From NCBI RefSeq assembly GCF_026151205.1, contig NC_087079.1:14322445-14386444 (forward strand): a stretch of 64,000 nucleotides of DNA. Direction: 5' to 3'. The first letter of the stretch is position 1, and every line of letters begins with the position of its first letter. The position numbers and the translations under genes are program-made. Shown piece by piece: positions 22,218 through 40,200 of the stretch. The notes beneath the pieces were generated by a model. It was not told where the DNA came from and did no database searches. It worked only from the letters and a program-made list of their open reading frames with translations. This stretch comes from Bolinopsis microptera. Lineage: Eukaryota; Ctenophora; Tentaculata; Lobata; Bolinopsidae.

Positions 22218-25200
22218 GTAAGTTAGAGCCTTTTTGATTCTGTGCCAGCTTCTTTTTGGATCGTTTTGTTTCGTCTATTAAGTATGAGGCATTTGTTGTA
22301 TTTTTTCAATGTGTTCCACTCCCAACATGATTTAAGAAAAGTTGTATTTTTAACGTAATAAAAGTCGGTAAGTTCAAAAAATAGTAAATAAGTCTAACAA
22401 AGCAGAAAAAAATTTAACAATTTATTAATTAGCCCTACATTATGCACAAGAAGAAGGTATAAATTAAGTGTTGAAGTTTTAAAATGTATTTGAACTTCTT
22501 TCTTTCGCTCTAAACAAGATAAGACCACAACTCACTATATTTGAACTTCTCAAATTTAATATTTTTAACTTCAAAATTAATCACAAGTCTGGAGTACAAA
22601 ATATATAATGTCTATTGTAAGCAAATCGGCACAAATGCTTAAATCAACCACTCGTCATCATTTACAAATTTTTAAATTTGATATTTTCATGTCTATTTCA
22701 ATATTTTTAAAGCTACAAAAACACACAAAATCACAAGTCATCAGTATAAAATGATTAATTAATTTCAAACATTTTTAAAAATTTAATTAAAAGTCTTGAA
22801 TTGATTATACGTGGATTAGTTGCCAATTTATCGGATTATTCGTTTAAACAATAATTCTAATTTTTTTGTACTTTCTTGAAGTTATTGATAAATTCACCAC
22901 CTCTCAAAGTATCTGATCTGAAAAGTTTTTCTTTCCACGAAGGTCCGTGTTTAGTGTTAATTCTCAGATAGTTCCGTTCTAAATTTTTGTGTACCCTCCG
23001 ACTCTGTGATGAATGTTATGGAAGACAGTGACTGGTAGATGTAGAAAAGTGGATATGTAACCTCTGTAAGTTGCTCTCAGCTCGGCTTTATGCAAAATCA
23101 GGACGGTTGGGAACAGTGCAGCATTTACCAGTGATAGGGTGAACCATGATATCAGCTGCATTTCATTAGCCGACTCATCTCGGTCCCATCTCTTTCCGTA
23201 CAGAGCGGTAACTACTATTAAGGAGCAAAGGTGAACTAAATTGCTGGATAGGTACAACAAGGATATCATGAATACTGTGATAGTGGCATGGTTTGCAACA
23301 TTTTGTCGCGGGTCTGCACTTTTTTTGAAGGCTCTTCTGATGTGAACTATTTGTAAAATCATACAAACAAATACAATTAAACAAGGTAAATATAACTCAA
23401 GCGAATTTACGCCCCAAGTGATGAGATTTGAATTTCTCAAAAGACTTCTGTGTTTAAACAAACTAACTATTATTTTTTCTAGTGTAGTGTATCCAATTGC
23501 TAACTCTATGATACCGTAACCAATCCAAGAGAAAAGCTGGTCTTGGCATTTGTTGAATACTGCGCCCCAATTTATATTCATAAAAATTGTATCGCTCACG
23601 GATAAAACTAGGCCAAAGAGCGAAAATAAAACAAGGCACAATTTTAAAGCACCCCCACGAATCCTATAGAACGGGTTTATTATATTTATTGTCTTCACAA
23701 CCGTCAGTACCATTCCAAAGAATATAGAGGTTACGTAGCACAGATTACCACACATGATGATCGTCACATATACAAGAAATGGCATCGCCCTGTCAAGGTT
23801 ATAGACGCACAGAAGGTTTATTGATCCCCGGGCTATTGCTGAACAAGCACTTCCAATGTCACCGGCAGCAATCATAAGGAAAAGAAAGGACGACAGTCGT
23901 TTCCAGTCTTTGAAGTAGTGATAAATAACCATTGAGTTCTGGATAATGATATAAACCGCGAGCGTCAGATTGGGAGGAGGGAGATAGCGGAAGAAGACAA
24001 ATGGAAGGAAGTCATTTAGTGCCCGAGCAGTGGTGGAGTCTGTTGAATCTGTTGAGTTCATTGCCTGGTGAAACTAAATTAGTGACCCTTGATCAAAGAA
24101 AGATTAGCTACAAAATTGTATGGCAATGAAAAAAAAACATCGAATTGAACGAAAATTTGTATCGCCTAAAGGATTGCAATTCCAAATATATAAATGTCGA
24201 GAATAGTTTTTCATCTAAAATCAAAAACAAAAATAGCTACTGCTTCCTGTTTTTCTCTCCTAACAAAGGTAAAACGAATTGTATATAATGGTACCGTGTC
24301 CCGACAGTAAGTATGTCTTGTTAACCAGTCTACTCACTTAACATATCCCGATTAGTTCCACTAGTTTCGTGTAAACTTCCCTACAATCAACGATCTGGGA
24401 GTTGATCACGTGACTTAAGATTTATCACGTGACTGATGCAAATAGGTAATATGAGAGCTGTTGCGGCTCAAATTTAAACTTGAGTAAGCTGATTTATAAT
24501 TTATTATTGGAAACTAAGTTGTGACGAACTATCGCGTCACAAGAAATGTTAACTGTTAAGGTAAAGCTGTAGAATGTAGATTGTAACAAGCTCGTGATCA
24601 TTATAAATATCAGTTATACGTAAAATAGAGCGGGAGGCGCCAGGTTATGTAAAAGTGATCGGATTGCTAAAACTTAAAAATATATGCTATTTTTCGACTA
24701 TCTTACTTCAATATGCACGCCATGTCTATGTTCCTTTTATTTTTATTTCTGTCTATTCCACTCTTATTACAATTTAATATTCAGGGTGATCAAAAAGTCC
24801 GGCCACAACTCAATATTTGAATAATTCAAAAGCGGGACAAGTTAATTCAATTTGTCTGCAAAGTTGTTTTGAAGTCTTTTATTTTATTTTTGTCAATTTT
24901 TAACGAAATAAAACTCGTTCAATAAAAACAGTAATTAAGTCTAATAACATGGAAAATGATATAAAATTAACTCTGTACCCCTGACGAGTATTTTTCTCAG
25001 AACGTAGCACACGCATAAAATTACCGTAGTATACACTATACATAAGTCCTGACTCTTGAAAGCCTGAATTATTTTAAAGAAGGAAGTATATTTTTACTGA
25101 TTTTTCGTTCCACTCTGTACCAAATGTTATACAATACCACCTGATATACATGTTTTAAAATTTATATTATATTTAAACTTCAATATCGATCACAATTCAT

Positions 25201-37200: not shown

Positions 37201-40200
37201 CGGGACCCCTCACAAATGTTCGGTCCACTGGTCCTAGTTTGTTGGTCAAACTGCTATCTCGAATCAAGTTTCACAAAAAAATACCCATTGCACCCCCCTT
37301 AATTTTCACTGCAGAAGTCGTAAAACTAATTTAGGTCCTTGCACTTCCCACGCGAGATAGCTTAACCATTTTGCAAATTGAGTAGGAACAAAGATTACTT
37401 GAGAGAAAGCCAGGCAGAGCTACTTGTCTTAGCTGGAATTCTGGGAGTTGGGACATAAATTCTTATGAGAAAAAGCTTTTCAAGAAAAAAAGTTAATCCT
37501 TGAATTAAATCCTTGTCCTGATTTCCTGAGAAAGGATTTGGTAATATTTAAGTTTTGTCACGTCTCACTTCTAAGAAGTTTGTAAAATAAAAATCCCAAA
37601 TTATGTACCCTGAATTAAATATTGATCGAATTATAAATGGTAATTAATGAATTAGTCGGTTAATTGTGCTTGTTTTGATAGTTTACCTCCAAATAATTAA
37701 CAATTCACTATCACTATAATAATATTTAGCAATGAATTATGTTGGACAGTCAAATCATTACGATGTTTTCTATACCTCTCACTAAGATCCTATATATCGA
37801 TGTATTCAAATCTATACATGATGTATTTTTTGTATATGGTACATTTGTAATTACATATATAATAGTCCCCTTTTATATGATCTTCCTAACACCCGGTTTC
37901 CTGTCCGGCAAAATCCGGCTAACCGGTATAATTTGATTGATATCGGCAAATCGGACCAGCTTTTGAGTATGATAGCAGATAGTTCAAATCGCATGTTCGC
38001 CAAAGGGTCATGTACGCCCTGATCGTATAAATTTCCAGTTCTAGATCATCATCTTACCCGGTGGTGTGTTGGTGGTGACTATTAAGATTTGATAGGAACC
38101 CAACACTTGAACTGACCCCACGTTTAGCTACTCACCCCACGTTTAGCTACTCCCCACGCTTTGAGCTTATCACCCCAGCTACTCACTAACACTGTCTTGT
38201 TCATCATTCTATACAGTGTAAAACATTTGCTAATTACAGATCAGTGTTCTTATAGTGTTCATTTTTACGCTCGCCGATCAATTGAGTTATGTATTGTAAC
38301 GAAATCACATACTATTAGTTATGCCTGATTCCGTGTCAAACAAAAAACCGGCGGTGTACCGTCCATGGCGGAAAATCCAAATCACTTGTAAAAATTCTGC
38401 AGTGCTGAAGTGGTGATTCTCTCTTGTGCTTGCAGTAGACATTACAGTGTAAAATGTAACTCGTTGATTCTACAGTTACCCTGATGCGGTGTGGTCACCT
38501 TGTAAACTTTTGGAGATTATTATATTTTAACTTGTATAATATATATTTAACTTATATTCAACTGTAGAGTGTAATAGAACGGTTGTGCTAGTTGTGATGA
38601 GAGTAGACTAAATGGAGGGGGAAAGAGCGGCAACATTTCCTTACACTGCACTGGATCAATTTCAATTAAGATACCATGTATGGGGGGAGAAGTAGTCACG
38701 TGCCATATTTTTCATATGCATAATGGCATATTATGGTAATTGTAATCGATCCAGGGTAATAAGGAAACCCGATGTTGCGTCTCCAACACCTCTTAAAATA
38801 ACGCAGCTAACGTGCTTAGTGTTTAGTGTAGTTAGTAGCAGGCAAATGTAGTATCAAGTGTAGTGTGCAGTGAACTACCGAGACCTTCTATAGGACACTA
38901 TAATACACTATAATATGACACTATAATACTTATGATCAAATTGCAATGATAACATAATTTCTACTGCATCATCCCAACTTAATTTTCTGAAGTACACAAA
39001 CACAGTGTACAAACAGTGTACAAATGTCAAAATGTTATATGCTTCCTACAATAGTTAAGTACGATATCAGCTTCCATTTTGTCTGATCTGTTTGCACATG
39101 ATTACATCAGAAGTACACTACACACTTGCATACTACACTCCTACATTGCACAGGAAACCTGACACACAAACTTGCAGATAATGCTGCATTCCTCACTTTG
39201 TAGTGGGGTGCAAGTGTGCAAGTGTGCACTAAACCATCATTACAGCAGACCTTTTTGAAGAATGTGGAGAATGTACATGCGGCGTTCCTTTCTCTTGATA
39301 GTTCATGAAATATTTATGTAGCTGGAGAAATGTTTGTCAGTTTTCCTAAAAATAGGTGAGTGTATTAAAAAAATACTGGTCGTACTGTACGTGGTGCTAT
39401 AGTGTATATGCTGGCAAGCCCCCCAGTATTTCAGACGTGGTACCACTGTGTTAATTTACAGTAGCCTGTGTTTCGGCCAACGACCAGTGTTAATTAAAAT
39501 TAATTGCTTGATTTTTGAAGTAACTATTTTCTGATATAACGCCCACGCGCATTTTTTAACTTGTAAAGCTTCACAGTTAAAATTTCGCAAAACGGAAACA
39601 GTATTCTTGTCTTCAAATTGTAGTTTGCAGTAACAAATGGGACAAATAAATCATAGTTCAAAACATATAATTTCACAATAGTGAAATCACATATTAGTAC
39701 CATCATATAGATTACGAACAATCCTGTAGATGATAATCCAACTAACTTATTACTTGAAGCGAGCATTATATCTCAGACGAGTGTTCAAATATGTAATTTA
39801 TTTTACAACCTTTAACCAACATCATTACTAAATGTTTACCAACATCCTTACTAAATATTTGCCCTCTTTCAGGCGAGAAGGTTTATCAGTTCTCTGAAAT
39901 ACTACCCACGATCCGACTTCGCCGAATTGTTCAGTGAATGCAGGTGTGTAACACTTTATTTTCTGGCAACTTTATTGCTCCAACTCGTTCGTTTATAGTA
40001 ATCATTTAGCAAGTCAAGATAGAGCTGTCACCTACCACGTGGTGTCACTTGGTGTCACGTGGTGTCCATGTCACGTGGTGTCAAGATACAGCAATCATTT
40101 AGCGTTAGAACGTTTTTACTGCTCTAAACAGCTGTTAGTTTTCCTTTGCGAGAGTGGTTATTGCCATGGCAACCATAAACCATGTGGCAGTGTATAATAC

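What the first reader, a model, noticed from the sequence alone, without database searches (positions are those of the whole stretch)
22218..39872. Antisense tandem GPCR array nested in a p38 MAP kinase intron
Intron 6 of the p38 gene (17.7 kb, others under 1.2 kb) contains four tandem copies of an intronless seven-transmembrane receptor gene on the opposite strand. Array growth explains much of the intron's size. The receptor units sit inside a signalling kinase transcription unit, so their transcription could interfere with p38. The exon joins and phases are directly visible; regulatory linkage is inference.
Basis: partly seen in the sequence, partly recalled or inferred. Interest (0 to 1): 0.72.

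Follow-up and report, generated by a model that had tools for sequence, protein, structure and literature searches.

The report
Receptor-like gene array inside p38 intron
An apparently animal p38 stress-kinase gene carries, inside one oversized intron and on the opposite strand, a small row of duplicated receptor-like genes (two intact, two broken); such nesting is ordinary, but the copies differ mostly in two loops predicted to face outward, which hints at a diversifying sensor.

Summary
The + strand encodes a complete p38 MAP kinase frame: 10 exons, nine GT-AG introns, 379 aa, TGY motif, 60% identical to human p38alpha over 318 aa. Intron 6 (22218-39872) is 17,655 nt; the other eight are 230-562 nt. 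A tandem array lies antisense at about 22552-32268, 55% of the intron. It is not four working copies: copies 1 and 3 are open (360 and 362 aa), copy 2 has one in-frame TAG, and copy 4 is a C-terminal fragment split by a 455-bp hAT-like insertion.

"GPCR" has only weak support: no 7TM Pfam or PDB match and a failed AlphaFold model, but an in-register profile alignment to class A receptors reached by 2 of 600 shuffles.

New here: amino-acid differences crowd into the predicted TM4-5 and TM6-7 loops while the first 160 residues are conserved, and the copies are mosaics of one another. I read this as a young chemoreceptor-type array diversifying in ligand-facing loops, nested passively in p38. Relaxed constraint is not excluded; regulation of p38 is untested. 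Opposite-strand nesting of intronless genes is well known, so interest is modest.

The parts
19542..41595 (+). p38 MAP kinase gene, 10 coding exons: 19542-19675, 19906-20035, 20451-20509, 20921-21110, 21673-21787, 22069-22217, 39873-39943, 40489-40606, 40906-40972, 41489-41595 (start codon and most of exon 10 rest on frame and splice sites, not on homology)
   Evidence: exons, GT-AG, 379-aa frame, 60% identity to recalled human p38alpha over 318 aa; PDB MAPK14/MAPK11, E about 1e-132, query residues 11-352 in most rows
22218..39872 (+). intron 6 of p38, phase 0, 17,655 nt, GTAAGT...CAG
22552..32268 (-). tandem array; start-to-start spacing 2.75-2.98 kb for the longest repeat family, 2.66-3.09 kb for others
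22979..24061 (-). copy 1, open 360-aa class A GPCR-like frame
25743..26807 (-). copy 2, one in-frame TAG (TCG in copies 1 and 3), otherwise open
28721..29809 (-). copy 3, open 362-aa frame
31476..32268 (-). copy 4, C-terminal fragment only (about residues 248-360), split by an insertion
31509..31963 (.). 455-bp hAT-like element without coding capacity seen: 16-bp terminal inverted repeats starting CAG, 8-bp target-site duplication ATTCGTCA at 31501-31508 and 31964-31971
   Evidence: hAT assignment from recalled hallmarks
35934..37302 (.). 1.37-kb foldback (near-palindromic) repeat, 94%, another contributor to the intron's length

Best explanation
A young family of class A GPCR-like receptors, single-exon in the coding part, lies antisense inside an enlarged, otherwise normal p38 intron and expanded there by local duplication and exchange between copies. 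Shown: nesting, orientation, two open copies plus two broken ones, mosaic sequence, conserved first 160 residues, excess of amino-acid change in two loops. Inferred: that they are membrane receptors with those loops outside the cell; that selection for new ligand recognition, rather than only relaxed constraint, drives loop change (chemoreceptor-type role); that each copy has its own promoter in the spacer; and that p38 simply splices across the array.
For: Complete p38 frame across the intron. Two open frames; coding lengths of copies 1-3 differ by whole codons. dN/dS 0.19-0.24 for alignment columns 1-160 but 1.07-1.50 for columns 161-225. 29 of 45, 27 of 51 and 21 of 41 amino-acid differences (copy pairs 1-2, 1-3, 2-3) fall in the two loops, which are about a fifth of the protein; replacement against silent codon changes in loops versus rest, Fisher p 0.001, 0.002, 0.0004. 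The TM6-7 loop varies at 18 of 39 aligned sites (46%) against 6-7% in the coding segments on either side and 11% in the upstream spacer. Copies share sites in region-dependent patterns (chi-square 113.5, 12 d.f.). Class A register: score 28.5, reached by 0 of 200 full shuffles and by 1 of 200 in each of two local shuffles.
Against: No Pfam hit at E up to 10 for copies 1 and 3 and no PDB match with the profile. AlphaFold mean pLDDT 40, unusable. The profile match is weak (probability 8.6%, 13% identity; copy 1 alone scores 24.2), against 145-210 for held-out true class A receptors. DRY arginine, CWxP and NPxxY tyrosine are replaced. A stretch in the TM4-5 loop (1.47) is more hydrophobic than the TM1 candidate (1.31), so the helix count is unsure. 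The TM4-5 loop's 19.3 variable sites per 100 barely exceed the downstream flank's 17.3, so that loop alone could be neutral; dN/dS above 1 rests on 35 silent sites and was not tested for significance. The three copy pairs are not independent, and I set the loop borders from hydropathy with the alignment in view. No expression data.
Confidence: 0.6

Rival explanations
1. The array is a functional antisense regulator of p38: receptor transcription interferes with or tunes p38 elongation or splicing. (Compatible with the best explanation; the odds given here are not exclusive.)
For: Physical nesting; interference by nested genes is documented for human genes (abstract of PMC3192792).
Against: No direct evidence here; a passive account suffices because most nested genes are on opposite strands (passages of PMC8467205).
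Confidence: 0.12
2. A multi-pass membrane protein family that is not a GPCR, for instance transporter-like or of another fold.
For: No match to a 7TM Pfam family or to PDB chains; only a sub-threshold DUF6141 match for C-terminal pieces (E 0.05 and 0.03); DRY and CWxP missing; uncertain helix count.
Against: Alignment over residues 38-332 placing N42, D68, P130, P226 and P318 on class A landmarks (landmark names recalled) and the shuffle controls.
Confidence: 0.25
3. A dying array: recently duplicated relic copies under little constraint, the loop variation being relaxed selection or conversion tracts.
For: Copy 2 stop, copy 4 truncation and insertion; dN/dS 0.54-0.73 over the whole gene; TM4-5 loop hardly more variable than the downstream flank.
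Against: Columns 1-160 conserved at dN/dS 0.19-0.24; two frames fully open; TM6-7 loop four times as variable as the upstream spacer.
Confidence: 0.2
4. Assembly artefact joins the array to p38.
For: Repeat-rich intron; no reads available.
Against: Exons 6 and 7 join in frame and complete the kinase; the window holds no N.
Confidence: 0.05

Closest known systems
Nested protein-coding genes of metazoans (Assis 2021, PMC8467205, passages read)
   Same: Short internal gene, intronless in its coding part, inside an intron of a multi-exon gene, opposite strand; internal genes often arise by duplication.
   Different: A tandem array rather than a single internal gene, and one oversized intron in an otherwise compact host.
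Tandem arrays of lineage-specific olfactory/chemosensory class A GPCRs, e.g. crown-of-thorns starfish ApORs (PMC5442662, passages read)
   Same: Tandem duplication, variable extracellular regions.
   Different: Here inside a kinase intron, only two open copies, and too divergent for Pfam to recognise; membership not established.
p38 MAP kinase (MAPK14/MAPK11)
   Same: Complete sequence with TGY activation motif.
   Different: Intron 6 enlarged to 17.7 kb.

Membership tests
p38 MAP kinase | TGY dual-phosphorylation motif and kinase motifs (GxGxx[12 protein letters not shown]) in a complete frame | tested here: met
p38 MAP kinase | best matches among solved structures are p38 kinases | tested here: met
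   the 60 of 100 hits shown are named MAPK14, MAPK11 or p38
class A (rhodopsin-like) GPCR | match to a 7-transmembrane family model | tested here: not met
   no such Pfam family; only a sub-threshold DUF6141 match to C-terminal pieces
class A (rhodopsin-like) GPCR | seven transmembrane helices, N-terminus outside | tested here: inconclusive
   six peaks over 1.5, TM1 candidate 1.31, a loop segment 1.47; K+R mostly denser in the predicted inner loops but the TM6-7 loop is also charged
class A (rhodopsin-like) GPCR | N1.50, D2.50, P5.50, P7.50 landmarks | tested here: met
   N42, D68, P226, P318 opposite these positions of rhodopsin in a weak alignment (numbering recalled)
class A (rhodopsin-like) GPCR | DRY arginine, CWxP, NPxxY tyrosine | tested here: not met
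   VKT at DRY; no CWxP; FPTVL at NPxxY
class A (rhodopsin-like) GPCR | class A fold | tested here: inconclusive
   mean pLDDT 40, pTM 0.27; no fold search made
nested gene | internal gene wholly within one intron of a host gene | tested here: met
nested gene | both units transcribed | not testable with these tools
   no RNA data
hAT non-autonomous element (31509-31963) | 8-bp target-site duplication and short terminal inverted repeats | tested here: met
   that these define hAT is recalled, and no transposase relation was tested

The most novel reading that the evidence does not exclude
An undescribed, lineage-specific receptor family whose two outer loops are diversified cassette-fashion (selection plus exchange between copies) while the signalling core is kept uniform, housed in the intron of a stress kinase that could be co-regulated with it: a small recognition-receptor library tied to p38 signalling.
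Probability: 0.1. Interest if true: 0.65.

Novelty: new member of a known kind. Interest (0 to 1): 0.33.

Why it matters
It gives a compact case of a receptor-like array growing inside a conserved kinase gene, with loop-focused divergence that can be tested by expression and population sequencing. If the loops are ligand-facing, it is a small natural experiment in how chemoreceptors diversify while their signalling core stays fixed. The nesting itself is an ordinary arrangement.

Tried and rejected
Whole-genome search: no genome held for this window, so neither other copies nor the species could be established; that it is an animal is inferred from the p38, LDL-receptor A and galectin matches. 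Rfam (gathering threshold) and tRNA scans: nothing. PDB search with copy 1 gave five eIF6 hits at E 0.33-0.38, read as chance. Relatives in viral contigs: two pattern matches, none confirmed; the same search with the alignment was not possible. The bacterial genome collection and the metagenome collection were not searched for relatives. AlphaFold on four window sequences failed, so no fold search was run. A bacterial promoter scan on the spacer is not meaningful for an animal and was not used. TATA-like sites lie 129-131 nt before the ATG in copies 1 and 3 and not in copy 2, and poly(A)-type signals 192-553 nt after the stop; too common in A+T-rich DNA to count. No further p38-like exon inside intron 6 was seen in the human p38 search. 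Circular shifts of the alignment (20 of 31 reached the real score) keep the same segments, so I do not count them for or against. The four-unit alignment was disturbed by the copy 4 insertion; the three-unit alignment is used for rates. Block 226-365 mixes core and the TM6-7 loop (dN/dS 0.77, 0.86, 3.51; in the pair 2-3 only 2.5 silent changes) and was not used for the contrast. The first p38 model misplaced the exon 9 end by one base; corrected. Literature: two id look-ups were not held; the searches returned no papers.

Full report
What is there. Setting the splice sites gives ten coding exons, nine GT-AG introns, and a 379-aa open protein that is 60% identical to human p38alpha over 318 aa and keeps the glycine loop, [11 protein letters not shown] and the TGY motif. 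The best PDB chains are MAPK14 and MAPK11 (60 of 100 hits shown, matched mostly to query residue 352, so the last 27 residues and the start codon rest on frame and splice sites alone). Exon 6 ends at 22217 and exon 7 starts at 39873, in phase 0, and the join completes the kinase domain. The nine introns measure 230, 415, 411, 562, 281, 17,655, 545, 299 nt and, after the one-base correction, 516 nt. I recall that human p38alpha has an exon boundary at the same place (end of the residues 230-254 exon that differs between CSBP1 and CSBP2); this was not tested.

The array. Self-comparison shows repeated units on the minus strand between about 22552 and 32268, spaced 2.75-2.98 kb in the longest repeat family and 2.66-3.09 kb in others, 55% of the intron. 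Copy 1 (360 aa) and copy 3 (362 aa) are open. Copy 2 is open except for one TAG where the other two have TCG. Copy 4 keeps only about the last third, ends upstream at a 25-bp tandem repeat, and is split near its end by a 455-bp element with 16-bp inverted ends beginning CAG and a perfect 8-bp target duplication, hallmarks of hAT elements as I recall them. A 1.37-kb foldback repeat at 35934-37302 adds further length. So 'four tandem receptor genes' is really two open copies, one with a single stop and one relic.

Is it a GPCR? No Pfam model matches copies 1 and 3 at E up to 10; C-terminal pieces of copies 2 and 4 give only a sub-threshold DUF6141 match (E 0.051 and 0.027). The profile of the copies finds no PDB chain; AlphaFold with the four window sequences gave mean pLDDT 40 and pTM 0.27 and was not used. 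Of 200 full column shuffles 0, and of 200 shuffles within 8-column and 200 within 15-column blocks 1 each, reached 28.5; bacteriorhodopsin scored 12.7 and the reversed copies 18.3, while the four held-out class A receptors scored 145-210. The alignment puts N42, D68, P130, P226 and P318 on class A landmarks (recalled), but the DRY, CWxP and NPxxY signatures are altered. Six hydropathy peaks exceed 1.5; the TM1 candidate reaches 1.31 and a segment in the TM4-5 loop 1.47. Lysine plus arginine count 3 of 7, 3 of 14, 5 of 16 and 5 of 36 residues in the predicted inner loops and tail, and 2 of 30, 1 of 19, 5 of 55 and 3 of 17 in the N-terminus and outer loops: inward on the whole, but the TM6-7 loop is also charged. 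I treat it as a divergent class A-like receptor, likely but not proven.

How the copies differ. Whole-gene dN/dS for the three pairs is 0.54-0.73, but 0.19-0.24 for alignment columns 1-160 and 1.07-1.50 for columns 161-225 (35 silent sites, no significance test); the remaining block, which holds core and the TM6-7 loop together, gives 0.77, 0.86 and 3.51. Amino-acid differences in the predicted TM4-5 and TM6-7 loops are 29 of 45, 27 of 51 and 21 of 41 (summed; the copy 2 stop counts as one difference outside the loops). Replacement against silent codon changes, loops against rest: 29:3 v 16:14, 27:5 v 24:23, 21:1 v 20:18, Fisher p 0.001, 0.002 and 0.0004; the three pairs are not independent, and I set the loop borders from hydropathy with the alignment in view. 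Across three units, variable sites per 100 are 11.3 in the upstream spacer, 8.8 in the first 160 codons, 19.3 in the TM4-5 loop, 6.3 in TM5-TM6, 46.2 (18 of 39) in the TM6-7 loop, 7.2 in TM7 and tail and 17.3 in the downstream flank. The TM6-7 loop thus stands out; the TM4-5 loop stands out against the rest of the gene but hardly against the downstream flank. Coding lengths of copies 1-3 differ by whole codons. Which two copies agree changes along the unit: 1 with 3 in the upstream spacer (85 of 123 variable sites), 1 with 2 in the first 160 codons (24 of 42), 2 with 3 downstream (44 of 72); chi-square 113.5, 12 d.f., with the caution that neighbouring sites are linked. In the TM6-7 loop copies 2 and 4 are nearly the same. 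Exchange between copies therefore shuffles segments, and the loops are where new amino acids accumulate.

How it most likely works. The simplest account is a chemoreceptor-type gene that sits in a p38 intron, duplicated there, and keeps a uniform core while its outer loops change. Crown-of-thorns starfish olfactory receptors show tandem arrays and variable extracellular parts (passages of PMC5442662). Nested genes are typically short, intronless and mostly on the opposite strand (passages of PMC8467205), so p38 probably tolerates the array by splicing across it. Nested genes can interfere with their host (abstract of PMC3192792), but nothing here shows that for p38.

Limits. No genome is held for this window, the species is unknown, and no RNA or reads were available. 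The possible acceptor just before the ATG leaves a 5' non-coding exon open. The novelty lies in the combination, not in any part. In the literature listings seen (20 of 59 papers, 3 of 3, 20 of 25, 4 of 4, 2 of 2; none returned) no title or abstract opening described a receptor array in a p38 intron; I read no paper in full, and the library lacks most subscription journals.

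Noticed in passing
window 3-2903 (-): 967-aa open frame that runs to the window edge, with a GIY-YIG domain at its end (sequence). It resembles a Penelope-like retroelement, but that is recalled: no reverse transcriptase model was reported for it at E up to 0.01.
   Followed up: partly
window 48197-54515 and 57720-64000: Tandem duplication of about 6.3 kb, 94-96% identical, reaching the window's end. The first copy holds an LDL-receptor class A exon (-) and a C2H2 zinc-finger gene (+); the second has matching frames (not scanned), and its zinc-finger frame breaks off early (348 against 689 aa).
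   Followed up: partly
window 55650-56229 (-): Two further LDL-receptor class A exons between the two duplicated blocks.
   Followed up: no
window 31509-31963: 455-bp hAT-like element with 16-bp inverted ends and a perfect 8-bp target duplication, inserted in receptor copy 4.
   Followed up: yes
window 9951-11515, 10768-11052, 14178-14397, 35934-37302: Several foldback repeats, the largest a 1.37-kb near-palindrome (94%) in p38 intron 6.
   Followed up: no
window 46163-47200, 54964-55222, 55470-55686: Minisatellite arrays with units of about 32, 11 and 43 bp.
   Followed up: no
window 7070-8281 and 9049-9243 (+): Reverse transcriptase fragment, a discoidin-like (F5/8 type C) domain and a galectin-like exon.
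   Followed up: no
window 24055-24400, 26801-27140, 29803-30155 (-): TTTCACCAG three bases before the ATG in copies 1-3, a possible splice acceptor hinting at a 5' non-coding exon.
   Followed up: partly
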